Assembly: GCF_016862555.1 (NCBI RefSeq) | Contig: NZ_BONE01000041.1 | Span: 1 to 64,000 of the forward strand | Length of the DNA stretch: 64,000 nt | Direction: 5' to 3' | Source of the DNA: Asanoa siamensis | Lineage (GTDB): Bacteria; Actinomycetota; Actinomycetes; Mycobacteriales; Micromonosporaceae | Part shown: positions 12,479-27,580 of the stretch, piece after piece | Layout: the number at the start of each line of letters is the position of its first letter | Position numbering within the stretch: position 1 is the first letter of the stretch | Program-made: the position numbers and the translations under genes | The notes under the pieces: model-generated | What the model was told of the DNA's origin: nothing | The model's input: only the letters and a program-made list of their open reading frames with translations | The model's database searches: none

Positions 12479-13366
12479 TCACGGCGTCACGTCGGTGCCC
12501 GGCCGCGCGTGCACCGTCAGCACCTCGGCCTGGCCCTGCACCTCGACCGCGACCGCGAGCACGTCGGGCTCGGCGCGGACCTTCTCGACCACCCCGTCGG
12601 GCAGGCCGAAGACGTCGACCTCCAGCACGCTGCCGGTGGCCACCTGCTGCTTGAGCCCGGCCGGGGTGTCCAGCGCGACGATCCGGCCTTGGGCGATCAC
12701 CGCGATCCGGTCGCACAGCTCGTCGGCCTCGAACATGTAGTGCGTCGTGAGCAGCACGGTCGTACCCGTGTCGACCAGGTTCTTGACCGTCGCCCGTAGC
12801 TCTCGCGCGCCGACCGGGTCGATGCCGATGCTGGGCTCGTCGAGGAAGAGCACCTCGGGCCGGTGCAGCAGCCCGCGGGCGATGTGCAGCCGCTGGCGCA
12901 TGCCGCGCGAGTAGCCCTCGACGCGTTCCTTCTCGCGCCCGTCGAGCCCGACGAGCTCCAGCAACTCGGCGATCCGCTGCTTCGACTCGCGCGGGGGCAC
13001 GCCGTACAGCTCGGCGAAGTAACGCAGGTTGTCGAGGCCGGAAAGGCGCTCGTAGAGACCGCGGTCGCCACCGAAGACATAACCGACCTTCCGGCGTACG
13101 TCGCGCGCGTCGTCGACGACGTCGTGGCCGAGGACCCGTGCCTGCCCACCGGTCGGCATCAGCAGCGTGATCAGCATCTTGATGGTTGTCGTCTTGCCGG
13201 CGCCGTTGGGCCCGAGCAGCCCGAAGAGCTCGCCGCGCTCGACCGCGAAGCTGACGCCCTTGACCGCCTCGACCTCCTTGCCGGTGCGGCGGAACAGCCC
13301 CTTTCGGGAGCGGAACGTCCGAGCCAACTCGTCGACCTGAATCACTGGTTGAGCCACGCACACCAT
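12479..13366 (-). CDS. ABC transporter ATP-binding protein, 3' end frameshifted
   Basis: 295-aa ATPase with Walker A GPNGAGKTTTIK, a Q-loop variant VGYVFGGDRGLYERLS, signature YSRGMRQRLHIARGLL, Walker B VLFLDEPSIGID and switch His in LLTTHYM. The frame stops at TGA 12481-12479 after HARPGTDVTP. The usual family C-terminus continues in the -1 frame as AVMGHLEGSRFGRVITRQPT and LEDAYIELVNAA, ending at 12387. So one base appears to be missing near 12480-12490, or there is a -1 ribosomal shift, or a sequencing error. About 30 C-terminal residues outside the catalytic core are affected, so the truncated ATPase may still work. First gene of the exporter operon. Confidence 0.85.
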   Translation of the reverse strand: MVCVAQPVIQVDELARTFRSRKGLFRRTGKEVEAVKGVSFAVERGELFGLLGPNGAGKTTTIKMLITLLMPTGGQARVLGHDVVDDARDVRRKVGYVFGGDRGLYERLSGLDNLRYFAELYGVPPRESKQRIAELLELVGLDGREKERVEGYSRGMRQRLHIARGLLHRPEVLFLDEPSIGIDPVGARELRATVKNLVDTGTTVLLTTHYMFEADELCDRIAVIAQGRIVALDTPAGLKQQVATGSVLEVDVFGLPDGVVEKVRAEPDVLAVAVEVQGQAEVLTVHARPGTDVTP

Positions 13367-13474
13367 CCCCGTCCGTCATCCGGCGCGGGGCCAACAGTGC
13401 TACATGAACGCCTTTCGCGCTACCCGTTATCGATCCATTGTGGATGCGTTAACATCGTCGATGTGCTGGACGAC

Positions 13475-14035
13475 ATGGTGTGGCTGAACGAGCCCGGAGA
13501 CTGGTCGGTCGACGGCGACGAGATCCGCGCGGTCACGTCACACAAGACGGATTTCTGGCGTACGACGTTCTACGGCTGGGCCACCGACAACGGGCACTTC
13601 TTCCACCGGCCCGCGACCGGCGACTTCTCCGCCGAGGCGCAGGTGTACGCCGACCACACCACCCTGTTCGACCAGGCGGGCCTGATGGTACGCGCCGACG
13701 AGCGCAACTGGCTCAAGACCGGGCTGGAGGTCACGTCGGGCAAGGTGCAGGTCAGCACCGTCTACACGCGCGAGTTCTCCGACCTCTCCGTCGTGCCCCT
13801 CGAGGCCGCGCCGGGGGAGACCGTCTCGTTGCGGGTGACCCGGTTCGACGACGCGCTCGCGGTGCACAGCCGCGTCGGCGACGGTGCGTGGCAACTGCTC
13901 CGGCTCGGCCACCTCGACCTGCCCGCCACCGTCGGCGTCGGTGTCATGTGCTGCTCGCCCGAGCGCGCCGGTCTGACGGCCAGGTTCCGCGGTTTCCGGG
14001 TGGGTCCGCCGATCTCCCGCGAGGGCCTCGAATAG
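13475..14035 (+). CDS. DUF1349 family protein (concanavalin-like fold)
   Basis: 186-aa soluble protein of the DUF1349 type, opening MVWLNEPGDWSVDGDEIRAVT with the characteristic TDFWRTTFYGW and later FDQAGLMVRADERNWLKTGLE. The family has a concanavalin-A-like beta-sandwich and is found as a stand-alone protein of unknown function. The start is uncertain: ATG 13475 gives the domain boundary, and an in-frame GTG lies at 13463. It is divergent from the ABC exporter operon and ends exactly where the convergent permease gene ends. Confidence 0.8.
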   Translation: MVWLNEPGDWSVDGDEIRAVTSHKTDFWRTTFYGWATDNGHFFHRPATGDFSAEAQVYADHTTLFDQAGLMVRADERNWLKTGLEVTSGKVQVSTVYTREFSDLSVVPLEAAPGETVSLRVTRFDDALAVHSRVGDGAWQLLRLGHLDLPATVGVGVMCCSPERAGLTARFRGFRVGPPISREGLE

Positions 14036-14989
14036 CTACCGGACCAGACGGGGCACCAGCCGGACGTACGCGACCATGCCCAGCACCTCCACCAGCGTCT
14101 GCGTGACGACGACGGCCGCCGCGAGGCTGAGCCGGTCCGACAGGGCCAGCGCCAGCGGCAGCACCACCAGCGAGTTGCGGGTCGCACCGGTGAACACCAC
14201 CGCCCGGGCCGCGCCAGTGTCCAGGCGGAACAGGCGGGCCACGCCCCACCCGGCGACGGCCAGCACGGCCAGGAAGATCACGTAGAACGGCACGACGCGC
14301 AGGACTGTGGTCACCTGGCCGGTCAGCTTCGGCACCTGCGACGCGACCACCACGAACAGCGTCGCGGCCAGCAGCGGCACCATGGCCGTTCCGGCGCCGG
14401 CCGCGACCGCCGCACCGGTCCGGCCGCGCGCCGCCCAGGCCTGCGTGAGCCAGGCGAGGGCCAGCGGGATCACGATCAGGAAGAGGAACGCCCGGAGGAA
14501 CGGGCCCGCGTCGACCGTCTCGCCGAGGCCGGAGCCGAGGAACAGCAGCAGGAACGGCGGCAGCAGCAGCATCTGCGCGATCAGCAGGAGCGGCGTCGCG
14601 GCCAGCAGTCGCCGGCTGCTGCCGCCCGCCAGGCCGCTGAACACGATCACGTAGTCGACACAGGGCGTCAACAACACCAGGAGTACGCCCAGCCGAACGG
14701 CCTGGTCGGCGGGAAGAAACCCGAACATCGCGGCGACGACCAGGGGCACGACGAGGAAGTTGACCACCAGCGCGGCCGCGAGGAACCGCCCGTCCCGCCA
14801 CGACCGCACCAGATCACGGGCCGGCACCTGCAGAAAAGTCACGTACAGCAGCGCGCCCAGGACGGGGTTGATCGCGTGTTCGAGCCCGGACCCGACCCCC
14901 GGCGCGGCCCAGCCGACCAGGACACCGGCGGCGATCGCACCGAGATATCCGGCAACCTGATGCCGCTCCATCGTCGCGGGCAGCGACAC
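14036..14989 (-). CDS. Arsenic/metalloid efflux permease (ACR3/BASS superfamily)
   Basis: 317-aa permease with about ten membrane segments. The segment LGVLLVLLTPCVDYVIVFSG carries the single conserved Cys typical of ArsB/ACR3-like members of the bile-acid:sodium symporter superfamily; GATRNSLVVLPLALAL is the matching late motif. It probably exports arsenite (or a related metalloid) using the proton gradient. It is the third gene of a leftward unit with the ECC protein and a MerR regulator, whose promoter has MerR-type geometry. The exact ion specificity is not readable; bile-acid-like anions remain possible. Confidence 0.83.
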   Translation of the reverse strand: MSLPATMERHQVAGYLGAIAAGVLVGWAAPGVGSGLEHAINPVLGALLYVTFLQVPARDLVRSWRDGRFLAAALVVNFLVVPLVVAAMFGFLPADQAVRLGVLLVLLTPCVDYVIVFSGLAGGSSRRLLAATPLLLIAQMLLLPPFLLLFLGSGLGETVDAGPFLRAFLFLIVIPLALAWLTQAWAARGRTGAAVAAGAGTAMVPLLAATLFVVVASQVPKLTGQVTTVLRVVPFYVIFLAVLAVAGWGVARLFRLDTGAARAVVFTGATRNSLVVLPLALALSDRLSLAAAVVVTQTLVEVLGMVAYVRLVPRLVR

Positions 14990-15064
14990 CCATGCCTCCA
15001 GGACCCACAGAGTTGCCGGCCAAGCCTACGTTCAGCACTCGCACCGGCCCAGCTACCGGCGCGG

Positions 15065-15517
15065 TCAGTGGTCGGGCGGGTCGGCGCGGTCACCGTCGTC
15101 GGCCAGGGCGGCGAGGTCCGCGAAGGGCATCGGGCAGGCCGGGCACGTGCAGTTGGTCAGGCTGTCGCATCGGGCCGCGACGACCTCTTCGAGTTGGCCG
15201 CGGATCGCCCGCAGGTCGTTGATCTTGTGGTCGATCTCCGCGAGCTTCGCTCGTGCGCGGGCCCGCAGGTCCGGGGTCGGGTGCCGCCGGCGCCCCGTGT
15301 CGAGGAGTTCGGCGACCTCGTCGAGGGTGAAGCCCAGCCGCTGCGCCGCCTTGATCACCGCCAGCAGCGTCACCGTCTCCGGGGGATAGCTGCGGTGCCC
15401 GCCCAGGCTCCGCGCCGGCGCGGTCAGCAGCCCCCGGCGCTCGTAGTAGCGCAGCGTCTCGACGTTGACCCCTGCACGGCCGGCGACCTCGCCGGTCCGC
15501 AGGCCGTCGGCGGCCAT
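15065..15517 (-). CDS. MerR-family metal-responsive regulator
   Basis: 150 aa. N-terminal winged-helix RTGEVAGRAGVNVETLRYYERRGLL, typical of metal-sensing MerR proteins, then a dimerisation helix and a Cys-rich C-terminus RCDSLTNCTCPACPMPF that can form a thiol metal site. It begins 5 nt after the stop of the upstream ECC protein and ends 75 nt before the permease start, so all three appear co-transcribed and autoregulated. The ligand (As, Sb, Hg or other soft metal) is unknown. Confidence 0.9.
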   Translation of the reverse strand: MAADGLRTGEVAGRAGVNVETLRYYERRGLLTAPARSLGGHRSYPPETVTLLAVIKAAQRLGFTLDEVAELLDTGRRRHPTPDLRARARAKLAEIDHKINDLRAIRGQLEEVVAARCDSLTNCTCPACPMPFADLAALADDGDRADPPDH

Positions 15518-18662: not shown

Positions 18663-21218
18663 GTGACTGACCCGCGCGCAGCGACGACGCTGGCGGCAGG
18701 CCGAGGGACGGCGGGGCAAGAGGAGGCCCTACGCATCTGGGAGGGCGTCCCGCTGCGTAACCCCGCCTTCACCGGTCGTGAGATGCTCCTGCTCACCCTG
18801 CGGCAGGCGCTGGACCGCAAATCCAAGGCGTCGGTTCTTCCGCACGCGCTTCATGGCATGGGCGGCGTCGGCAAGACCCAGCTCGCGGTGGAGTTCGCCT
18901 ACCGTTTCGCGGAACGCTATGACGTGGTGTGGTGGATTCCCGCCGAACACCAGACGGTCGTGCTCCAGTCTCTGCGTGAGCTGGGCCGACGCCTCGGCAC
19001 TCCGGAAACCGCCAACCTGCAGCAGGCCGCCAGTCTCGTGCTCGATGAACTGACCAGGTCCACGCAGCGTTGGTTATTGATCTACGACAATGCCAGCAAT
19101 CTGGATGATCTGGTCAAGCTCATTCCGTCCGGTGGCGGCCACGTCATCCTCACGTCCCGCAACCAGACCTGGTCCGACGTCTGGGATCCGATCGAGGTCG
19201 ACGTCTTCGACCGCCCGGAGAGCATCGAACTCGTTCGCAAGCGCAGCGTCGACGTCACGTTGGAAGACGCGGAACGACTGGCCGAACGGCTCGGTGACCT
19301 GCCGCTCGCCTTGGACCAGGCAGCCTCGTGCCAGGCCGAGACGGGCATTCCGGTGCCCGAATACCTCGCTCAGCTCGACGAGCACATGCGCGCGTTGACC
19401 GCGCATGACCAGCAGTCCGAGAGCTTGAGCACGATCGCGGCGCTGGTTCGCCTGTCTCTCGAACGTCTCCGGGCCGATGCGCCACCCACCGCGGAGCTGC
19501 TGGAGCTTTTCGCGTTTCTGGGCGCCGAGCCGATCTCCGGAGGTCTGTTGCGCCGAGGGCGCGATGCCGACGTCTCGGCGGCGCTCAAGAGCGCGCTCCG
19601 CGACGAGACCCGCCTCGACCGCGCGATCCGGAAACTGAATCGCTACGGCCTGTCCAAGCCCGACGCCAACAGCAAGATTCAGGTGCACCGGCTCTTCCAG
19701 TTCGTGTTGCGCGACCAACTCGGTGAGGAGGCGGCCGAGCGCAGCCGGACGAACGTCCACCGGGTGCTGGCCTCCGCGAACCCGGGCTACGCCAAGAACG
19801 CGGAGACCTGGCAGACACATGCCGAGATCGGCCCGCACATCGAGCCGGCCGGGCTGGTCGACTCCGAACTGCTCGACGCTCGCCGCGTCGTCCTGGACCA
19901 GGTGCGATACCTGCAGCTCATCGGAGACCTGGACGGGTCCCGCAAGCTCGCGGAGTCGGCCTACCAGTCATGGTCCAAGGTCGAGGGTGCCCCGCTGCTG
20001 GGGCCCGAAGGTGAGCTCACGCTGCTCGCCGGCTCCCAACTGGCCGTGTCGCTGCGCCTCTCAGGTTTCAACGAGCGCGCCCGCACCCTGGCTGACGAGG
20101 TCTTCGCGCGGTTGCGCTCGAGTGCCGCCTTCGGCCCGGATCATGAGCACACCCTGAACGCGGCGACCGAGGTGGGTCCGAACCTGCGCGTCGCCGGCCT
20201 TTTCCGCGAAGCGCTCGAGCTCGACAAGGACACGGTTGCCCGCACACGCCGACTCTTCGGTGACGAAGACCCGGACACGTTGATGGCGCTGGGCAACCTC
20301 GCCGTCAACGAGCGCATGCTCAACAACTTCGCCGGCGCCCACAAGATCGACGCCGAAGCGGTCCAGACCTGGCAGCAGACCGTCAGCGAAAATGACATCC
20401 GGTTGTTGTTCGCGCAGACCAACCTGGCACGCGACCTTTACGGCATGGGCCGGTACGGGGAAGCGCTCGCACTGCAGCGCAACGTCTTCCCGCCCTTCCG
20501 CGAACAGCTCGGCTCGCACCACCCGAACGTCCTGCTCGCCGCCCGCACCTTGGCCATCACCCTCCGGAAGGTGGGCCGCTACAGCGACGCCTTGGCCGTT
20601 GCCGAGGAGCATTACCGCGGCACCATCAACAGGTACGGCGAAGACCACGAGCACTCGCTGGCCGCGGCGATGACCCTGGCCAACACCCTGCGGGTCAACG
20701 ACGATCTCGTACGTGCGAAGGACTTCGCGGACAACGCGACGAGTAGGTACCTCCGCGTCTTCGGAGCCGATCATCCCCTGACCCTGGCGGCGATGGTCAA
20801 CTTCGCGATCGTCCTGCGTGCACTGGACGAGAACGACCGGGCGCGAAAGCTCGACGAACGCAGCCAGGCTCAAATGATCGACAGGTTGGGTCAGACCCAT
20901 GGCTACACCCTGTGCGCGACCAGCGGCCTCGCGAACGACCTCGCCGCTGCCGGGGAGAGCGCCGAAGCCCGCCGGCTGTCGGAAGCGGTGCTGGCCACCT
21001 CCCGGGGGACCCGTGGTCCGGAGCACCACTACACGTTGGCGTGTGCCGTCAACGCGGCGCTCGACCTCATCACCGTTGGTGAGGATACGGCCGGTCACGC
21101 CATGCTGGACCAGGCTACGGCGGCACTTGCCGAGGTGCTCGGTGAGGAGCATCCGGAGGTTGTAGGCGCCCGGGAGCAGCATCGGATCGAGTGCGACATC
21201 GAGCCTCCGCCGACCTAG
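18663..21218 (+). CDS. fxsT: FxSxx-COOH system NB-ARC/TPR protein (paralog 1)
   Basis: 851 aa. An NB-ARC STAND ATPase core has Walker A GMGGVGKTQLAVEFA (about residues 64-78), the sensor-like VVWWIPAE, Walker B WLLIYDNASN and a LAERLGDLPLALDQAAS motif. From about residue 380 to the end it is a run of TPR-type repeats (for example GNLAVNERMLNNFAGAHKID and TLANTLRVNDDLVRAKDF), closing with the family ending ECDIEPPPT. Such proteins accompany FxSxx-COOH radical-SAM peptide systems; their role (regulation, scaffold or peptide sensing) is not known. GTG 18663 follows a weak GGGG. It is convergent with precursor gene 1 and paralogous to the protein at 21847-24705. Confidence 0.88.
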   Translation: MTDPRAATTLAAGRGTAGQEEALRIWEGVPLRNPAFTGREMLLLTLRQALDRKSKASVLPHALHGMGGVGKTQLAVEFAYRFAERYDVVWWIPAEHQTVVLQSLRELGRRLGTPETANLQQAASLVLDELTRSTQRWLLIYDNASNLDDLVKLIPSGGGHVILTSRNQTWSDVWDPIEVDVFDRPESIELVRKRSVDVTLEDAERLAERLGDLPLALDQAASCQAETGIPVPEYLAQLDEHMRALTAHDQQSESLSTIAALVRLSLERLRADAPPTAELLELFAFLGAEPISGGLLRRGRDADVSAALKSALRDETRLDRAIRKLNRYGLSKPDANSKIQVHRLFQFVLRDQLGEEAAERSRTNVHRVLASANPGYAKNAETWQTHAEIGPHIEPAGLVDSELLDARRVVLDQVRYLQLIGDLDGSRKLAESAYQSWSKVEGAPLLGPEGELTLLAGSQLAVSLRLSGFNERARTLADEVFARLRSSAAFGPDHEHTLNAATEVGPNLRVAGLFREALELDKDTVARTRRLFGDEDPDTLMALGNLAVNERMLNNFAGAHKIDAEAVQTWQQTVSENDIRLLFAQTNLARDLYGMGRYGEALALQRNVFPPFREQLGSHHPNVLLAARTLAITLRKVGRYSDALAVAEEHYRGTINRYGEDHEHSLAAAMTLANTLRVNDDLVRAKDFADNATSRYLRVFGADHPLTLAAMVNFAIVLRALDENDRARKLDERSQAQMIDRLGQTHGYTLCATSGLANDLAAAGESAEARRLSEAVLATSRGTRGPEHHYTLACAVNAALDLITVGEDTAGHAMLDQATAALAEVLGEEHPEVVGAREQHRIECDIEPPPT

Positions 21219-21237
21219 CCGGCGCGGGGAGTCCTGG

Positions 21238-21423
21238 TCAGGACGAGCTGCTGTGGGCGGCGTAGTAGTCGCCCGGCTCGGTCATCTCGTGGACGAGCCG
21301 CCGAAGCGCGGTGTTCAGTGCCGAGTCGTCGCTGGTGAGCACCGACTCCAACGGCAGCGCGTCGACGTTCGGTAGGTGCGGCTCCCCGTCTTGATCAGGA
21401 CTGCGTCGCATGGCCTCGTGCAT
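21238..21423 (-). CDS. RiPP precursor peptide 1 (YAAH core)
   Basis: 61-aa peptide ending GDYYAAHSSSS. The leader has the FxsA-like helix LPNVDALPLESVLTSDDSAL plus NTALRRLVHEM. It aligns with the second precursor over L-x-LE-x-V-x(5)-DS-x-L-x(3)-L-x-RL and the tail G-x(2)-YAAH-(S/G)-(S/T). ATG 21423 has GGAGG at 6-nt spacing, which rules out the longer upstream frame. It lies between the two TPR genes on the opposite strand, divergent from paralog 2. Known FxsA peptides end in FxSxx; here the only aromatic residues near the end are Tyr-Tyr and His, so a modified Tyr or His ring is the likely product (inference). Confidence 0.8.
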   Translation of the reverse strand: MHEAMRRSPDQDGEPHLPNVDALPLESVLTSDDSALNTALRRLVHEMTEPGDYYAAHSSSS

Positions 21424-21846
21424 CTGATGCCTCCATCCGGTGCGCTGGCGGGTTATTCGGTTCACGCGACGTGGTCCGCCAGAAGGCAGCCATCCGCCGC
21501 GGCGGGCCCGGATGCGACGCAACCATCGCTGAGACGCAATGAGCGGCCGCGGTGCACCCGCACCGCTGCGCCGCCATGCTCTGCGACCACGATACGTCGA
21601 CATCCGTCGCTTCCCCAAGCCTTGCGTCACGGCAAGTTAGCTATGCGTAATGGGCTGGGAAAGATCCACTTTAAGGCGACAGTGGAGAAACGTAGATCAA
21701 TTCTGTCGGCCTCCGGTCAATGATTGCGGATGGTTACCCGGTTGTGCGCGAATGTAGAATCGTTGACCTGACAGAAATTGACGTCAGTTGGCAGTGGGCT
21801 AGGCCGCCCGGTCGAGCCGTCGAGTGTGGATCAGGAGAGTGGGCGG
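21424..21846. other. Divergent promoter region of precursor 1 and TPR paralog 2
   Basis: About 420 bp with lower GC near 21640-21790. It must hold the promoters of the leftward precursor and the rightward TPR gene. Longer in-frame extensions of both genes run into it but lack coding character and ribosome-binding sites. No other gene is seen. Confidence 0.5.
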
Positions 21847-24705
21847 GTGCCGCAGCATGATCTCCTGGCCGAACTTGACCTACTTCACCGTGCTGCCGGC
21901 CGGCCTTCCTATCGTCGCATCAGCAACGAAATTCGTCGTCAGAACCACATGCCTGACACCGTGAGCCACGAAACGGTGGGCTCCATTCTGCGTGGTGAGG
22001 CCCTCGTTCGCTGGTCCAAGGTCGAGTGCGTGGTGCGCCAACTGGCCGCGATGGCGGTCCACCGCCCGGATCCGGACGACGAGGTGCGTCGGTTCCACGT
22101 GCTCTGGACGGCGGAGTTCGATTCCCAGACCGCTGATCCGATGCCGCCACGACAGTTCGATCCGATCGCGGCGTCGGTGATCGACGCGGGGCGTGCGAGA
22201 GCGACTTCCGACTTCCCGTCACCGACCACCGCTCAGTCCGTCGTCGGGGCGAACGGTGGGCGATCGATCGGCATGGCACCGCAGCGGAACCGTGGCTTCA
22301 CCGGTCGTCGCGAACTGCTCGAACAGGTGAGATCCAAGCTCGGGGAACAGCCCTGGAAGCCGCTGGTCCTGCACGGCCTGGGTGGCGTGGGCAAGAGCCA
22401 GCTCGCGCTGGAGTTTCTGCACCGGTACGCACGCGACTACGAGTTCGTCTGGTGGATCACCGCGGAGGACCCGTCCCAGGTCACGCCCGCGTTGGCGACA
22501 TTGGGCGAACGGCTCGACTGGCAGTCCAGCTTCGACATGGCACAGACCGTCCGGAGCGTGCTTGCCCGGCTGGAGACCGGCGTTCCGCGCTGGTTGATCG
22601 TCTACGACAACGCCGGTGCGCCGGACGAGATCCGCTCGCTCGCGCCGCAGGGCGGCGGCCACCTGCTGATCACGACGCGGGACCCCGCCTGGCTGGCGAT
22701 CGGCCGTCCGGTCGAGGTCGACGTGTTCACCCGGCCGGAAAGCGTCGAGCTGCTCTGTGCCCGCGGCCATGACATCGGCTTCGCCGAGGCCGACCAGCTC
22801 GCAGAACGCCTGGGCGACCTGCCGCTCGCACTCGAGCAGGTGGCGGCCATGCAGTCGGCCACCCGCACGCCGGTCGAGGAATACTTCCGCCAGTTGGACG
22901 ATCGTGCGTTGCAGTTTCTCGAGTCGATGCCCCTCGGCGACTACCGCACCGCCATCGGCACGGCCTTCGTGGTGGCGGTGGAGCGGCTCAACGAGGAGTC
23001 GCCGACCGCCGCCGCCCTGCTCAGCCTGCTGTCGTGCGTGGGAGCCGAACCCATCTCGCGCACCCTGTTACGCAGTGGTGCCCACCGGGTGCCCCCACCG
23101 CTGGGGCGGCTGCTCGACCAACCGGACCTGCTGGACGAGACGATCTGGCAACTCCGCCGGTACGGCCTGGTCAGAGTCGTCGACAACGGGCAGACACTCC
23201 AGGTGCACCGCCTCATCCAGGCCATCGTCCGCGAGGCGATGTCCGTCGAGGAGCGTGCCGGCGCCTACGCCAACGCACGGCTCCTCCTGGCCGCGGCCAA
23301 CCCTGGTCGCCCCCGGGAGCCGTTGACCTGGGACATGTACGCACGGATCGGCCCGCATCTGCGCGCCGCGCGCATGGTCGAAGCGATCGAGCGGGACGCA
23401 CGGCAGGTACTCATCGATCACGCCACCTACCTTTCCGAGATCGGCGACTTCGAGGGCAGCCGTCGGCTCAGCGAGGAGGCGCTCGAGGCGTGGGCACCGG
23501 GGGCTGCCGACGACGTCCAGGTGGTCACCTGCCTGCGTCGGCTGGTCGCCGCGCTGTTCGCGCTGGGCCGCCACGGCGAGGCGTACCGCCGGGCCGAGGA
23601 GGCCAGGATGCGGCTAATCGACCATCCGGACTACGGTCGCGATCATCCAGCCACACTCGAGTTGTCCGATGTGCTGGCCGTCCTGCAGCGGGTGTTCGGC
23701 AGATACTCCGAGGCGCTGAGCCGCGACAGGGAGATCGTCGAGGGTTACCGGCGCACTCGTGGCGACAACCACCCGGAAACCCTTGCTGCCCGCAACAACC
23801 TGGCGGCCAGCCTCCGCGCGGTGGGCGACTTCCGGGCCGCGCAGGAGATCGACGAGGTGCTCGTCAAGACTCGGCGTGAGCTGCTCTCGTCGGACCACCA
23901 GCAGACGCTGCTATCCGTCTCGAACCTCGCCCGCGACCTGTATGGCATCGGTGATTACGCGGCTGCCCTGGATCTTCAGCGCTCCACCTGTTCGGCGTAT
24001 CGTTCTCGGCTCGGAGACCGGCACCCGCTGGTGCTCGCCGCTTGGCGGACCATCGTGCAGGGTCTGCGGAAAACCGGCCAGTACGGTCCGGCGATCGAGG
24101 AGGGCCAGCGGCTCTTCGTCGTCGCCCAGACGCACCTGGGGGCGGACCACGAGTTGACGTTGGCGACGATGATGACCTACGCCAACACCCTCCGCGCGGC
24201 CGGCGATGTCTACCTGGCTTCGAACCACGCCGCCGACGCCGTCGATCGCTATCGCCGCACCTACGGCGAGCACAATCCCCTGACGTTGGCCGCGGCGACC
24301 AACCAGGCCATCGTGTTGCGCGCGGTGGGTGAGCGCCGCCTGGCCCGTCGAGTGGGCGAGGCGAGCCTGAGTGCCCTGCGACAGGTGCTCGGGCCCGACC
24401 ATCCCTACGCGATCCTCGCGGCCACGGGTGTCGGCAACGACCTGACGCTGGCCGGTGAGCACGAGATCGCCCGTCGTCTGCTCGCCCGGACGTTGGAGGA
24501 CGCCAAACGTATGTGCGGCGACCGGCACCCGGACACCTTGGCCTGCGGGGTCAACCTCGGCCTGCTGTTGCCCTCGGACCAGCCGGCCCTGCTCGAAGCG
24601 AGCATCGACGGGCTGCGGCGGTCCTTGGGCGCGCGTCACCCGGTGGTGGAGGCCGCCATGGCGGGTCGGCCGGTGGAATGCGAAATCGAGCCCCCACCGG
24701 TTTAG
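21847..24705 (+). CDS. fxsT: FxSxx-COOH system NB-ARC/TPR protein with HTH-like N-terminus (paralog 2)
   Basis: 952 aa from GTG 21847, which has GGAGAG 7 nt upstream; a TTG at 21778 would add 23 residues. Unlike paralog 1 it begins with an extra domain, PSYRRISNEIRR to SHETVGSILRG, resembling a helix-turn-helix, then a linker and the NB-ARC core (Walker A GLGGVGKSQLALEF, VWWITAE, WLIVYDNAGAP, LAERLGDLPLALEQ). TPR repeats fill the second half (AARNNLAASLRAVGDFRAAQ, LATMMTYANTLRAAGDVY), ending ECEIEPPPV. It lies 74 nt upstream of the radical SAM gene on the same strand. The DNA-binding-like domain suggests it may control the locus (inference). Confidence 0.88.
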   Translation: MPQHDLLAELDLLHRAAGRPSYRRISNEIRRQNHMPDTVSHETVGSILRGEALVRWSKVECVVRQLAAMAVHRPDPDDEVRRFHVLWTAEFDSQTADPMPPRQFDPIAASVIDAGRARATSDFPSPTTAQSVVGANGGRSIGMAPQRNRGFTGRRELLEQVRSKLGEQPWKPLVLHGLGGVGKSQLALEFLHRYARDYEFVWWITAEDPSQVTPALATLGERLDWQSSFDMAQTVRSVLARLETGVPRWLIVYDNAGAPDEIRSLAPQGGGHLLITTRDPAWLAIGRPVEVDVFTRPESVELLCARGHDIGFAEADQLAERLGDLPLALEQVAAMQSATRTPVEEYFRQLDDRALQFLESMPLGDYRTAIGTAFVVAVERLNEESPTAAALLSLLSCVGAEPISRTLLRSGAHRVPPPLGRLLDQPDLLDETIWQLRRYGLVRVVDNGQTLQVHRLIQAIVREAMSVEERAGAYANARLLLAAANPGRPREPLTWDMYARIGPHLRAARMVEAIERDARQVLIDHATYLSEIGDFEGSRRLSEEALEAWAPGAADDVQVVTCLRRLVAALFALGRHGEAYRRAEEARMRLIDHPDYGRDHPATLELSDVLAVLQRVFGRYSEALSRDREIVEGYRRTRGDNHPETLAARNNLAASLRAVGDFRAAQEIDEVLVKTRRELLSSDHQQTLLSVSNLARDLYGIGDYAAALDLQRSTCSAYRSRLGDRHPLVLAAWRTIVQGLRKTGQYGPAIEEGQRLFVVAQTHLGADHELTLATMMTYANTLRAAGDVYLASNHAADAVDRYRRTYGEHNPLTLAAATNQAIVLRAVGERRLARRVGEASLSALRQVLGPDHPYAILAATGVGNDLTLAGEHEIARRLLARTLEDAKRMCGDRHPDTLACGVNLGLLLPSDQPALLEASIDGLRRSLGARHPVVEAAMAGRPVECEIEPPPV

Positions 24706-24779
24706 CGTCCAGAACGCGTAGGGAGACTTAGCCCATGATTGGCCGATTTGTCACTCCGTCGGCGATGAGGTGTTGACCC

Positions 24780-26021
24780 GTGGCAGAACCGCGGATGATC
24801 GGGATGCCGGCCAACACCAACAATGCCCTGTGGCCGAACGAGTCGCTGGACGTGCCGGCGTTGCGGGCCTCGGGCTGGCGGCCCACGCCGTTCCGTGACG
24901 TCGTGCTCAAGGTCCACCAGCGCTGCAACCTGGCCTGCGACTACTGCTACGTCTACACGATGGCGGACCAGACCTGGCGCGACCGCCCCCGGACGATGGC
25001 GCGCGCCGTCTGGCGTGCGGCCGCCGAGCGCATGGCGGAGCACGCCGAGGCGCATCAACTGCCGAGGATGCGGCTCATCCTCCATGGTGGTGAACCGCTG
25101 CTCGCCGGTCGCGAGACACTCGCCGCCCTGGTCGCGGACTTCCGCGCGGTCCTGCGTGACACGTGCGCGCTGGACGTACGGATCCAGAGCAACGGGGTCC
25201 TGCTCGACGCGCCGACGCTCGACCGATTCGTCGAGCAGGGTGTTTCGGTCGGGATCAGTCTGGACGGAGCACCGGCGGAGACCGATCGACACCGCCGCTT
25301 CCCCGACGGCCGCGGGAGCTTCGCCGCCGTGGATCGAGCTCTCCAGCTGTTGAGCAGCACCTATCCATCCGCGTTCGCCGGGCTGCTCTGCACGGTCGAC
25401 CCGACCACGGACCCGTTAGCCTGTTACGCCGCCCTGTTGCGCTATCAGCCGCCGCTGATCGACTTCCTGCTGCCGCACGCCAACTGGTCAGAACCTCCGC
25501 ACTGGGCCGGCGCATCCGGTCAGCAGCCGGTCGCTGACTGGTTGATCGCCATCTTCGACCGCTGGTACGACGCCCCACGCCAGGAGACCAGCGTCCGCCT
25601 GTTCGAGGACATCATCGCGTTGTCCCTCGGCGGTCGCGGCCGCTCCGAGCAGGTCGGCCTCAGCCCGGTGGCCGTCGTGGTCGTGGAGAGCGACGGCGTC
25701 ATCGAGTTGGTCGACTCTCTCAAGTCGACCTACCCCGACGCCTGTGCCACCGGTCTGTCCGTTCTGACCCATGACTTCGATGCGGCGCTCTCCCACCCCG
25801 GGGTGGTCGCACGGCAGATCGGCCTGCGCGCGCTGGCCGACACCTGTCGTCGCTGCGCGCTCCACCCGGTCTGTGGCGGGGGGCATTACGCCCACCGGTT
25901 CCGGGCCGGCGACGGCTTCCGCAACCCGTCGGTCTACTGCGCCGACATGTTCGCCTTGATCCAGCACGTGATCGATCGGGTCCACCGAGATGTGTCAGCC
26001 CGGCTGAGGAGCTCCGCATGA
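24780..26021 (+). CDS. fxsB: FxsB-family radical SAM/SPASM peptide maturase
   Basis: 413 aa. The radical-SAM cluster motif is CNLACDYCYVY (CxxxCxxC, about residues 49-56) after FRDVVLKVHQRC, with the GGEPLL SAM motif next. A C-terminal SPASM/twitch region has CRRCALHPVCGGGHYAHRF and YCADM, able to hold auxiliary Fe-S clusters. The FxsB family makes three-residue cyclophanes by linking an aromatic ring to a beta-carbon of a residue two positions on. The GTG at 24780 has GAGGTG at 7-nt spacing. The stop overlaps the next start (ATGA), so maturase and hydroxylase are coupled. The probable substrates are the YAAH peptides at 21238 and 27383. Confidence 0.93.
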   Translation: MAEPRMIGMPANTNNALWPNESLDVPALRASGWRPTPFRDVVLKVHQRCNLACDYCYVYTMADQTWRDRPRTMARAVWRAAAERMAEHAEAHQLPRMRLILHGGEPLLAGRETLAALVADFRAVLRDTCALDVRIQSNGVLLDAPTLDRFVEQGVSVGISLDGAPAETDRHRRFPDGRGSFAAVDRALQLLSSTYPSAFAGLLCTVDPTTDPLACYAALLRYQPPLIDFLLPHANWSEPPHWAGASGQQPVADWLIAIFDRWYDAPRQETSVRLFEDIIALSLGGRGRSEQVGLSPVAVVVVESDGVIELVDSLKSTYPDACATGLSVLTHDFDAALSHPGVVARQIGLRALADTCRRCALHPVCGGGHYAHRFRAGDGFRNPSVYCADMFALIQHVIDRVHRDVSARLRSSA

Positions 26022-27325
26022 TCGATTTCCACCGTCTGGAGGCCGGTCGGTTCAAGGGACTTGGATCCGGGTTGGGCGGCACCGCGGCGATCTCGGACCT
26101 CGCGGCAGCGCAGCGCAGCAAACGCCTGCTCCTGCTGCGATACCTCGGTGAGGAGTGGCAGGGCGACGATGCCCGGCACGCGATCGACGTGCTCATCCGT
26201 GCCGACAAGCGGGATCCGAAGGCCGTTTCCGACCTCGTCGGCGATCCGCTGGTCGGCGCCTGGGCCGCCCGGACCGTGCGGCGCGTTCTCGGCCAGGTCG
26301 AGTCGCCGGTGCCCCTTCGCCATGACCTGGCGCAACTCGGCGCCTTGGCCGCGGCGGCGGCGCTACGGACCGGTGCGGACGAGGAGCTCCGGACCCACAC
26401 GCGGTCCGGCCGTCTGACACTGCCGACCCTTGGCACCGCGGATCTCGGTGTGGACGGACCCGCGCTCGTGACCGTTGCCGGCGGTCACGCCACAATGTCG
26501 TGCGGTGGACGGTCGGTCGCCACCGACGACGACGAGCGCTGGTGGCCGCTGTGGCGGCTCGCCGCGGAGGCTGGCCAGGCTGAGGTCGCCCTGGTCCTGG
26601 AGGACGGCAACGCGTTCCGCGACTGCTACCACGCCCCGCCGGCCGATCGGCTGACCCAATACGAGGTTCACCAGTGGCAGGAGCTGCTGACGGAGGCCTG
26701 GGACCTGCTCGGCCGGTACGCTCCCGAGCGTGCCGCCGAGCTTGCGGTCGGGATGCGCTCGTTGGTGCCGTTGATCACCCAGAGCGACGGCGAGGCCCGC
26801 AGTGGCACGGCCCGGGACGCGTTCGGTGCGACAGGACTCACCCGACCGGGGTCCGCCTGGGATTTCGCGGTCACGCTCGTCCACGAGTTCCAGCATTCGA
26901 AGCTCAGCGCGCTGCTCGACCTGACGGCTCTCTACACACCCGGTGGCCTGGAACGACACTTCGCTCCGTGGCGTGAAGACGCTCGCCCGACGACCGGACT
27001 CATCCAGGGCGTCTACGCGTTCCTCGGCGTCTGCGACACGTGGCGTGCGCTGCGGGTGGCACCCGGCCTCGAGGAGCGGGCGACGCGGGAGTTCGCGAAC
27101 GTGCGCCGGCAGACCGAGGCCGGCCTCGTCGCGCTGGAAAAGTCGACAGAGCTGACCCCGCTGGGGCGCGATTTCGTGGCCGAGCTTCGCGGCACCCTTA
27201 CCCGTTTCCTTGCCGAGCCTGTTCCTCCGTCCGTCGACGCGGAGGCCGACGAATTGTTGGCTCGATTGCGCGGAAAGTGGAGCCAAAATAACTCTGGCGT
27301 TGACAACTCAGCGACGCTCATCTAG
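26018..27325 (+). CDS. HExxH-type peptide-modifying enzyme (putative aKG-dependent beta-hydroxylase, TIGR04267-like)
   Basis: 435 aa. Mostly helical protein with the key motif VTLVHEFQHSKLSALLDL (HEFQH, about residues 289-293) and a downstream ALRV/RATREF region. It matches the HExxH putative peptide-modification proteins found next to FxsB enzymes, members of which hydroxylate beta-carbons in precursor peptides with iron and 2-oxoglutarate rather than cutting them. Coupled to the radical SAM gene by a 4-nt overlap and followed 57 nt later by precursor gene 2. Peptide hydroxylation alongside or before cyclophane formation is the likely role; a metalloprotease function is less likely. Confidence 0.87.
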   Translation: MIDFHRLEAGRFKGLGSGLGGTAAISDLAAAQRSKRLLLLRYLGEEWQGDDARHAIDVLIRADKRDPKAVSDLVGDPLVGAWAARTVRRVLGQVESPVPLRHDLAQLGALAAAAALRTGADEELRTHTRSGRLTLPTLGTADLGVDGPALVTVAGGHATMSCGGRSVATDDDERWWPLWRLAAEAGQAEVALVLEDGNAFRDCYHAPPADRLTQYEVHQWQELLTEAWDLLGRYAPERAAELAVGMRSLVPLITQSDGEARSGTARDAFGATGLTRPGSAWDFAVTLVHEFQHSKLSALLDLTALYTPGGLERHFAPWREDARPTTGLIQGVYAFLGVCDTWRALRVAPGLEERATREFANVRRQTEAGLVALEKSTELTPLGRDFVAELRGTLTRFLAEPVPPSVDAEADELLARLRGKWSQNNSGVDNSATLI

Positions 27326-27382
27326 TGGGTAGGATTCTCTGCCGTGCGGCTCGTCGTCGGTGGCAGGCCCCATTTGAAGGGC

Positions 27383-27580
27383 ATGAATATGGAGCACTCC
27401 GAGAGCCTCTCCGGCACGGCAGCCCACGAGCCGGCAGTCGCCAACCTGAGCCGCGTCTCGCTCGAAGCAGTGTTCCGCCCGGGTGACTCGGTGCTCGACA
27501 GCGTGTTGAGCCGTCTGCTGGCCACGGCAGGCGATCAGGGCGAGAATTACGCGGCGCACGGTACGACGCCAACGCCGTAA
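27383..27580 (+). CDS. RiPP precursor peptide 2 (YAAH core)
   Basis: 65 aa (63 if the second ATG at 27389 is used, which has GAAGG at 8-nt spacing). It ends GENYAAHGTTPTP. Leader VANLSRVSLEAVFRPGDSVL then DSVLSRLLATAGDQ matches precursor 1 in the SLE-x-V / DS-x-L / L-x-RL positions. The shared YAAH is followed by Gly-Thr-Thr and a Pro-Thr-Pro tail, so it does not end in FxSxx. It follows the hydroxylase gene on the same strand and is probably co-transcribed with it. This is a short gene easily missed by gene callers. Confidence 0.78.
   Translation: MNMEHSESLSGTAAHEPAVANLSRVSLEAVFRPGDSVLDSVLSRLLATAGDQGENYAAHGTTPTP

What the first reader, a model, noticed from the sequence alone, without database searches (positions are those of the whole stretch)
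18663..27580. FxsB/HExxH RiPP locus whose two precursors carry a YAAH core instead of FxSxx
Seen: a radical SAM/SPASM protein with CxxxCxxC and SPASM cysteines, an HExxH protein coupled by ATGA, two NB-ARC/TPR proteins and two short peptide genes. Known: FxSxx-COOH systems combine FxsB maturases, TPR proteins and sometimes HExxH peptide hydroxylases. Odd: neither peptide ends in FxSxx. Precursor 1 ends GDYYAAHSSSS and precursor 2 ends GENYAAHGTTPTP. With no Phe in the core, the crosslinked ring is probably Tyr or His, and the HExxH enzyme may add a beta-hydroxyl. This would be a variant triceptide-type pathway with two cores served by one enzyme pair.
Basis: partly seen in the sequence, partly recalled or inferred. 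Interest (0 to 1): 0.9.

Follow-up and report, generated by a model that had tools for sequence, protein, structure and literature searches.

The report
FxSxx peptides with His replacing Phe
This actinobacterial gene cluster encodes two small peptides of a known ring-forming family in which the ring-building phenylalanine has been swapped for histidine, which probably gives a new imidazole-bridged version of a known kind of modified peptide.

Summary
In detail: two NB-ARC/TPR genes, an FxsB radical SAM/SPASM gene, an overlapping HExxH gene and two precursors ending GDYYAAHSSSS and GENYAAHGTTPTP. The enzymes pass the FxsB, aKG-HExxH and FxSxx_TPR models; precursor 1 even passes the FxSxx-COOH model. 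The framing needs correction: His sits at the Phe of FxSxx. Three relatives encode one [YF]AAF-GN and one YAAH-(S/G)S precursor side by side, and precursor 1 ends H-x-S-x-x-COOH. YAAH is kept, as a cassette pair, in five other Micromonosporaceae genomes (one FxsB group with the window, support 74), while Ala codons vary. Of 143 distinct precursor frames the ring position reads Phe in 111, His in 22, Trp in 6, uncalled in 4. His also occurs in four loci outside the group. Two TPR genes and two precursors are not special to YAAH. Most likely: a His-x-(Ser/Thr/Asn) cyclophane made by FxsB, then beta-hydroxylation by the HExxH enzyme; a second Tyr-Ala-Ala ring is possible. No chemistry was tested. 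New variant of a known kind.

The parts
18663..21218 (+). TPR gene 1: NB-ARC + tetratricopeptide STAND protein (FxSxx_TPR), 851 aa
   Evidence: NF040586 878.5 bits vs cut-off 300; NB-ARC and TPR_12 in Pfam
21238..21423 (-). Precursor peptide 1, 61 aa, ends GDYYAAHSSSS; convergent with TPR gene 1
   Evidence: TIGR04268 32.2 bits vs cut-off 28; GGAGG before ATG; homologous pairs in 5 other genomes
21241..21264 (-). Core of precursor 1: YAAH (21253-21264), then S-S-S-S to the C-terminus
   Evidence: read; His aligned to Phe of FxSxx
21778..24705 (+). TPR gene 2: NB-ARC + TPR protein (FxSxx_TPR); the true start may lie downstream of the TTG
   Evidence: NF040586 798.5 bits vs cut-off 300
24780..26021 (+). 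FxsB-family radical SAM/SPASM cyclophane maturase, 413 aa
   Evidence: TIGR04269 450.1 bits vs cut-off 370; ChlB radical SAM domain 9gm3 E 2.3e-74
24924..24947 (+). CNLACDYC, the CxxxCxxC radical SAM motif
   Evidence: its three Cys invariant in 23 aligned sequences
26018..27325 (+). aKG-HExxH-type peptide beta-hydroxylase, 435 aa, overlaps FxsB by ATGA
   Evidence: TIGR04267 162 bits vs cut-off 40; SjiH crystal structures 22nu (E 3.2e-50 by sequence) and 22ob (TM 0.84 by fold)
26882..26896 (+). HEFQH metal-binding motif (residues 289-293)
   Evidence: H289, E290, H293, W318, D321, R323 invariant in 20 aligned sequences, P0004 included
27389..27580 (+). Precursor peptide 2, 63 aa, ends GENYAAHGTTPTP
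   Evidence: homology to precursor 1 and relatives; GAAGGG before ATG; no NCBIfam hit
27548..27580 (+). Core of precursor 2: YAAH (27548-27559) followed by GTTPTP and stop
   Evidence: read; alignments

Best explanation
The locus is an FxSxx-type (FxsB) cyclophane RiPP cassette in which both precursors have His instead of Phe at the ring-forming position. FxsB abstracts a hydrogen from C-beta of the residue two after the His (Ser in precursor 1, Thr in precursor 2) and joins it to the imidazole, most likely at C2, giving a three-residue His-x-Ser/Thr cyclophane (inferred). The HExxH enzyme, an iron/alpha-ketoglutarate oxygenase by family, then hydroxylates a beta-carbon in or near the ring, the His itself being the best guess (inferred). 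The two NB-ARC/TPR proteins are the usual STAND partners of FxSxx systems and probably sense or deliver the product (inferred). Shown by sequence: family membership, position of the His, conservation, clustering in the FxsB tree. Not shown: any reaction.
For: FxsB, HExxH and TPR proteins pass curated models. Leader and core register are shared with Phe precursors; L046, L054 and L057 each encode a YYAAF/KFAAF/KYAAF-GN and a YAAH-(S/G)S precursor near one FxsB, so His replaces Phe. Genome G259 (L057) has only one FxsB match at E<=1e-60, so one enzyme may have to serve both. Ring position in 143 distinct frames: Phe 111, His 22, Trp 6, uncalled 4; the residue two on is Ser/Asn/Ala/Asp in Phe frames and Ser/Thr/Asn/Gln/Val in His frames. 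His-type ends HESSI (L071), HQSSV (L205), HTSTT.. (L184) and HMVKL (L183) occur outside the group. Precedent: MscB joins C4(Phe) to C-beta(Ser); YhhB (the second-best NCBIfam model for P0003) and HaaB/ScaB join C2(His) to a C-beta (PMC11002830, passages); [quoted passage not shown] P0004 shares HExxH and PWREDxRPxxGL with ChlH (alignment) and matches SjiH and ChlH folds.
Against: No biochemical data. Thr at +2 (4 of 22 His frames, 0 of 111 Phe frames) would give a crowded C-beta, not recorded for FxsB in the passages I saw. Tyr three residues before the His is invariant in the 18 YAAH frames but present in only 7 of 111 Phe frames, so Tyr may be the ring residue or a second one. No FxsB residue was found that tracks the His preference. 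Support for the six H+H loci as one group is 74, not decisive, and only 54 of 111 tree rows carried a core label. The precursor profile was seeded with YAAH frames, so His may be over-counted.
Confidence: 0.68

Rival explanations
1. The ring is Tyr-Ala-Ala: FxsB joins Tyr C3 to C-beta of the second Ala of YAA, as ScaB does with a His-to-Tyr mutant of its HAA motif, and His is a free or hydroxylated residue.
For: Tyr and both Ala are invariant in the 18 YAAH frames; HaaB/ScaB act on HAA, and ScaB on the Tyr mutant (PMC11002830, passages).
Against: In Phe frames the -3 position is mostly Ile, Leu or Val (82 of 111), so the inherited ring site is Phe/His; YAAF precursors with Tyr also exist beside YAAH; His at the ring position recurs without Tyr (4 of 22).
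Confidence: 0.12
2. Ordinary FxSxx system with degenerate or decoy peptides: the His substitution abolishes ring formation and the peptides stay unmodified or act only as binding partners of the TPR proteins.
For: One orphan copy in G103 ends YAAR; TPR/NB-ARC genes make up most of the locus by length.
Against: YAAH is invariant while the other ten aligned precursors are 33-50% identical to precursor 1; Ala codons vary but residues do not; both cassette copies in six genomes keep it; FxsB and HExxH keep their motifs.
Confidence: 0.1
3. The HExxH enzyme acts as the releasing enzyme: oxidative or hydrolytic cleavage at the small residues just before the ring frees the C-terminal peptide.
For: PflC/PosC HEXXH enzymes cleave the backbone oxidatively at Ala (PMC12636437, abstract and passages); an eLife 2020 analysis predicted that the zincin-like protein cleaves FxSxx precursors (PMC7159879, section 24); AG, AA or SA precedes the ring in 94 of 111 Phe frames and AA in 17 of 21 machine-called His frames; no peptidase model was hit among the six cassette proteins in NCBIfam or Pfam apart from TIGR04267 itself.
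Against: Its nearest solved relatives are SjiH and ChlH, and ChlH is a beta-hydroxylase (figure legend); PMC13060819 lists beta-hydroxylation of His, Asp, Phe, Gln and Pro for the family (passages).
Confidence: 0.1

Closest known systems
FxSxx-COOH / FxsB systems (TIGR04268, TIGR04269, TIGR04267, NF040586), including MscB (C4 Phe to C-beta Ser)
   Same: Same protein families, shared leader and core register; precursor 1 passes the peptide model
   Different: His in place of Phe at the ring position in both precursors; invariant Tyr at -3; Thr or Gln also seen at +2; precursor 2 is two residues longer after the ring and misses the model
SjiH (PDB 22nu, 22ob), aKG-HExxH family
   Same: Closest solved structure to P0004 (E 3.2e-50; TM 0.84)
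   Different: Its substrate is not described in the papers held; that it belongs to an FxsB cluster with SjiB is recalled, from no call
ChlB/ChlH of Chlorogloeopsis: cyclophane synthase and aKG-HExxH hydroxylase
   Same: P0003 matches the ChlB radical SAM domain (E 2.3e-74); P0004 matches ChlH (E 1.5e-8, TM 0.57)
   Different: Fused protein (on the fusion); no TPR partners or FxSxx peptide are mentioned in what I read
YhhB, HaaB and ScaB maturases (His C2 or Tyr C3 to C-beta)
   Same: Show that radical SAM maturases can use His or Tyr as the ring residue (PMC11002830, passages)
   Different: Other enzymes; P0003 scores 330.7 on the YhhB model, below its cut-off of 445; HaaB and ScaB were not compared with P0003

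Membership tests
FxsB maturase (TIGR04269) | Score over the curated cut-off | tested here: met
   450.1 vs 370 bits
FxsB maturase (TIGR04269) | CxxxCxxC and SPASM cysteines | tested here: met
   C49, C53, C56, C356, C359, C365, C387 invariant in 23 aligned sequences, P0003 included
FxsB maturase (TIGR04269) | Forms a three-residue cyclophane | not testable with these tools
   needs co-expression and MS/NMR
FxSxx-COOH peptide (TIGR04268) | Precursor 1 over the model cut-off | tested here: met
   32.2 vs 28 bits
FxSxx-COOH peptide (TIGR04268) | Precursor 2 over the model cut-off | tested here: not met
   no hit up to E 10
FxSxx-COOH peptide (TIGR04268) | Phe as ring residue, five from the C-terminus | tested here: not met
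   His in both; five from the end in precursor 1, seven in precursor 2. Note that 60 of 111 Phe frames also have more than five residues from the ring to the end
aKG-HExxH peptide beta-hydroxylase (TIGR04267) | Model cut-off, HExxH motif, fold | tested here: met
   162 vs 40 bits; HEFQH; fold match to SjiH and ChlH
aKG-HExxH peptide beta-hydroxylase (TIGR04267) | Hydroxylates the precursor | not testable with these tools
   needs assay
FxSxx_TPR (NF040586) | Model cut-off | tested here: met
   878.5 and 798.5 vs 300 bits
Fused FxsBH, inactivated form (NF040587) | Model cut-off | tested here: not met
   145.2 vs 225 bits; separate gene with intact HExxH

The most novel reading that the evidence does not exclude
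YAAHxS/T carries two adjacent cyclophanes made by one FxsB: Tyr C3 to C-beta of the second Ala (Y-A-A) and His imidazole to C-beta of Ser/Thr (H-x-S/T), a compact bis-cyclophane hexapeptide that the HExxH enzyme hydroxylates. Tyr is invariant where His replaced Phe in this group (18 of 18 frames) but rare in Phe frames (7 of 111), and the related ChlB is called a multiple cyclophane synthase in a paper title (reference list).
Probability: 0.22. Interest if true: 0.65.

Novelty: new variant of a known kind. Interest (0 to 1): 0.45.

Why it matters
It gives a natural substitution series (Phe, His, Trp at one ring position, in three loci Phe and His side by side near one FxsB) for asking how FxsB selects its ring residue and whether the HExxH enzyme depends on it. 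If the His ring forms, FxsB joins the enzymes that make imidazole-carbon crosslinks, here at Ser/Thr beta-carbons, in a system whose biological role (STAND/TPR partners) I found only predicted, not tested.

Tried and rejected
Rejected: that the two-precursor, two-TPR layout is special to YAAH. Of 87 distinct FxsB loci in the fetched stretches and the window, 52 have a HExxH frame, 57 at least one and 38 at least two TPR frames; seven Phe+Phe loci have two precursors. Rejected: that HExxH presence goes with His. Tried: FxsB columns specific to the His loci; three weak columns came out of an alignment holding five of the six H+H loci, and the best (F374) is shared by Phe-type or unlabelled loci and is Tyr in L044, so it is not diagnostic. 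Tried: small conserved frames beside 27 FxsB genes without a detected precursor; the top hits lay mostly inside or against FxsB itself. In 16 stretches fetched elsewhere in such genomes (L173-L182, L185-L190) a Phe-type precursor with a HExxH frame, and in 15 of 16 a TPR frame, was found without FxsB. Tried: papers on the variant. No paper in nine searches was seen to describe it; HxSxx occurs in none of the five papers listed for FxSxx, HxSxx or YxSxx. The library lacks most subscription papers, so this is weak.

Counting limits: the 143 frames (E<1e-3) are distinct strings, not independent events. The profile was seeded with YAAH and YAAF-like frames, and L183 and L184 were first met with a YAAH profile (L184's place also passes TIGR04268). 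The letters printed mis-assign YAAH as Tyr; one search corrects this, and I moved L057 to His and L066 to Trp by eye. The four uncalled are the L172 YAAR frame, L250, L067 (has X letters) and L244. Outside the count, L207 reads YGSAF (Tyr at the ring). Of 70 loci taken from the TIGR04268 class search, one search gave no frame for five and weak or noisy ones for a few more; L205 is the one I read as His. One search printed many frames in the wrong strand and was used only where the frame was right.
Full report
WHAT IS THERE. The window lies in genome G000, contig C41 (8.78 Mb). Between 18663 and 27580 are two NB-ARC/TPR genes, an FxsB-type radical SAM/SPASM gene, a HExxH gene overlapping it by ATGA, and two short precursor genes, the first on the minus strand facing TPR gene 1. 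NCBIfam names the large proteins FxsB (450.1 vs cut-off 370), aKG-HExxH-type peptide beta-hydroxylase (162 vs 40) and FxSxx_TPR (878.5 and 798.5 vs 300); precursor 1 passes FxSxx-COOH (32.2 vs 28), precursor 2 has no hit. Of ten flanking frames put to Pfam seven had hits (among them a DUF1349 protein, an SBF transporter, a MerR regulator, a methyltransferase and a heme oxygenase upstream, a BTAD/NB-ARC regulator and an ABC-2 membrane protein downstream) and three had none; none of the seven suggests a part in the cassette.

RELATIVES. A search of 300 genomes of the family with the FxsB found matches in 196 at E<=1e-60. I fetched stretches around 80 matches and scanned them, with 19 named loci (partly the same places) and the window, using a profile seeded by the two peptides and eight relatives. 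Five other genomes carry two YAAH precursors each in the same cassette: L039 (Phytohabitans suffuscus), L040 (G090), L041 (Virgisporangium aurantiacum), L042 (Phytohabitans flavus) and L044 (G103). With a profile of eleven YAAH precursors, these and the window's genome are the 6 of 354 family genomes with a match below 1e-15; 74 of 354 have one at E<=0.001. The weaker ones that I read are Phe- or Trp-type except in G195, G245 and G259, which carry one His precursor each; I did not read every weak match. In a sample of 394 genomes of the class, three have a match at E<=0.001 and only the window's is strong. G103 also holds four copies away from the cassette, three YAAH and one YAAR, with no FxsB, HExxH or TPR frame in the 18.5 and 19.5 kb fetched around them.

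WHERE THE HIS SITS. In L046, L054 and L057 two precursors lie side by side, one ending in YYAAFGN, KFAAFGN or KYAAFGN and one in NYAAHGS, SYAAHSS or NYAAHSS, each followed by a short tail. Leader and core align, so His takes the place of the Phe of FxSxx. Precursor 1 ends H-S-S-S-S, exactly H-x-S-x-x-COOH. Over 143 distinct precursor frames the ring position reads Phe 111, His 22, Trp 6, uncalled 4 (two letters set by eye). Four His cases lie outside the YAAH frames: SGHESSI (L071, Actinophytocola), AGHQSSV (L205), ISAHTSTT (L184) and IAKHMVKL (L183). The residue two after the ring residue is Ser 81, Asn 25, Ala 4, Asp 1 in Phe frames; in the 21 machine-called His frames it is Ser 12, Thr 4, Asn 3, Gln 1, Val 1. 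Tyr stands three before the ring in 17 of those 21 (18 of 22 with L057) and in 7 of 111 Phe frames.

IS IT REAL. YAAH is invariant in 11 precursors of which ten are 33-50% identical to the first. In 18 frames the two Ala codons vary (GCG, GCC, GCA, GCT) while the residues do not. By plain base shuffling 0.035 such frame ends are expected per 64 kb; there are two.

HISTORY. In a tree of 111 FxsB proteins (quick method; 54 rows with a core label, L205 not in it, L071 in it but unlabelled) the six loci with two His precursors need one change (support 74), the three mixed loci one (98). They lie in a 21-row set (97) with three Phe+Phe loci, one Phe locus and eight unlabelled rows; in the genomes of several of these eight I read Phe-type precursors elsewhere in the genome. 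Of the five other genomes of the window's genus in the set, four have FxsB matches and none a strong YAAH match, so the distribution is patchy.

HOW IT PROBABLY WORKS. MscB joins C4 of Phe to C-beta of Ser; YhhB and HaaB/ScaB join C2 of His to a C-beta two residues on (review PMC11002830, passages; that MscB's InterPro family is FxsB is recalled). YhhB is the second-best NCBIfam model for P0003. The simplest reading is a His-x-Ser/Thr cyclophane. P0004 is by sequence and fold a relative of SjiH (22nu/22ob; E 3.2e-50, TM 0.84) and more distantly of ChlH (8s5f; E 1.5e-8, TM 0.57) (model mean pLDDT 92.9). ChlH hydroxylates His and Asp on a peptide that already has a cyclophane (PMC12636437, introduction and a figure legend), so a hydroxyl on the ring His is a natural guess. 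Oxidative backbone cleavage, reported for PflC/PosC in the same paper (abstract and passages), is an alternative role. The NB-ARC/TPR proteins fit the proposal that such peptides are toxins or signals coupled to AP-ATPase/TPR proteins (PMC7159879, section 24), which is a prediction, not a test. The FxsB model (mean pLDDT 83.4) was not used further.

VERDICT. The core is best described as HxSxx, the FxSxx motif with His at the ring position, in a small group that also fixed Tyr upstream. The cassette itself is usual for the family. No description of this variant was seen in nine searches of the held open-access library; two main papers on triceptides and on the fused HExxH enzymes are not held, so prior notice of His-type FxSxx peptides cannot be excluded.

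Noticed in passing
L171 (8919-9626) and L172 (6063-6356, 13587-13769, and inside 12997-15303): Genome G103 (same genus code as Phytohabitans) carries four copies of the precursor away from its cassette, three YAAH and one YAAR, with no FxsB, HExxH or TPR frame in the fetched stretch; the YAAR copy lies beside a frame that reads to my eye like a trypsin-type serine protease (no family search run).
   Followed up: partly
L043, L045, L047 and others versus L173-L182 and L185-L190: Several genomes have FxsB alone at one place, and a Phe-type precursor (FNSAL and similar) with HExxH and mostly a TPR frame but no FxsB at another, so the maturase may act in trans.
   Followed up: partly
L066, L069, L073, L105, L106, L170; L207: Six precursors have Trp at the ring position (WQS, WNS, WSS) and one outside the count has Tyr (YGSAF): further natural variants of FxSxx.
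   Followed up: no
L042 11756-14274 (minus strand): The second TPR gene of the Phytohabitans flavus locus is split into two frames, a possible frameshift or sequencing error.
   Followed up: no
L046 16650-17311, L054 6839-7114, L057 7017-7340, L044 6783-7091: Some precursors run on for about 18 to 36 residues after the ring residue, so the C-terminal position implied by the name FxSxx-COOH is not kept.
   Followed up: no
G000 outside the window: The window's genome has a second FxsB match at E<=1e-60, whose place was not listed and whose precursor was not sought; the only TIGR04268 match over cut-off in the genome is precursor 1.
   Followed up: no
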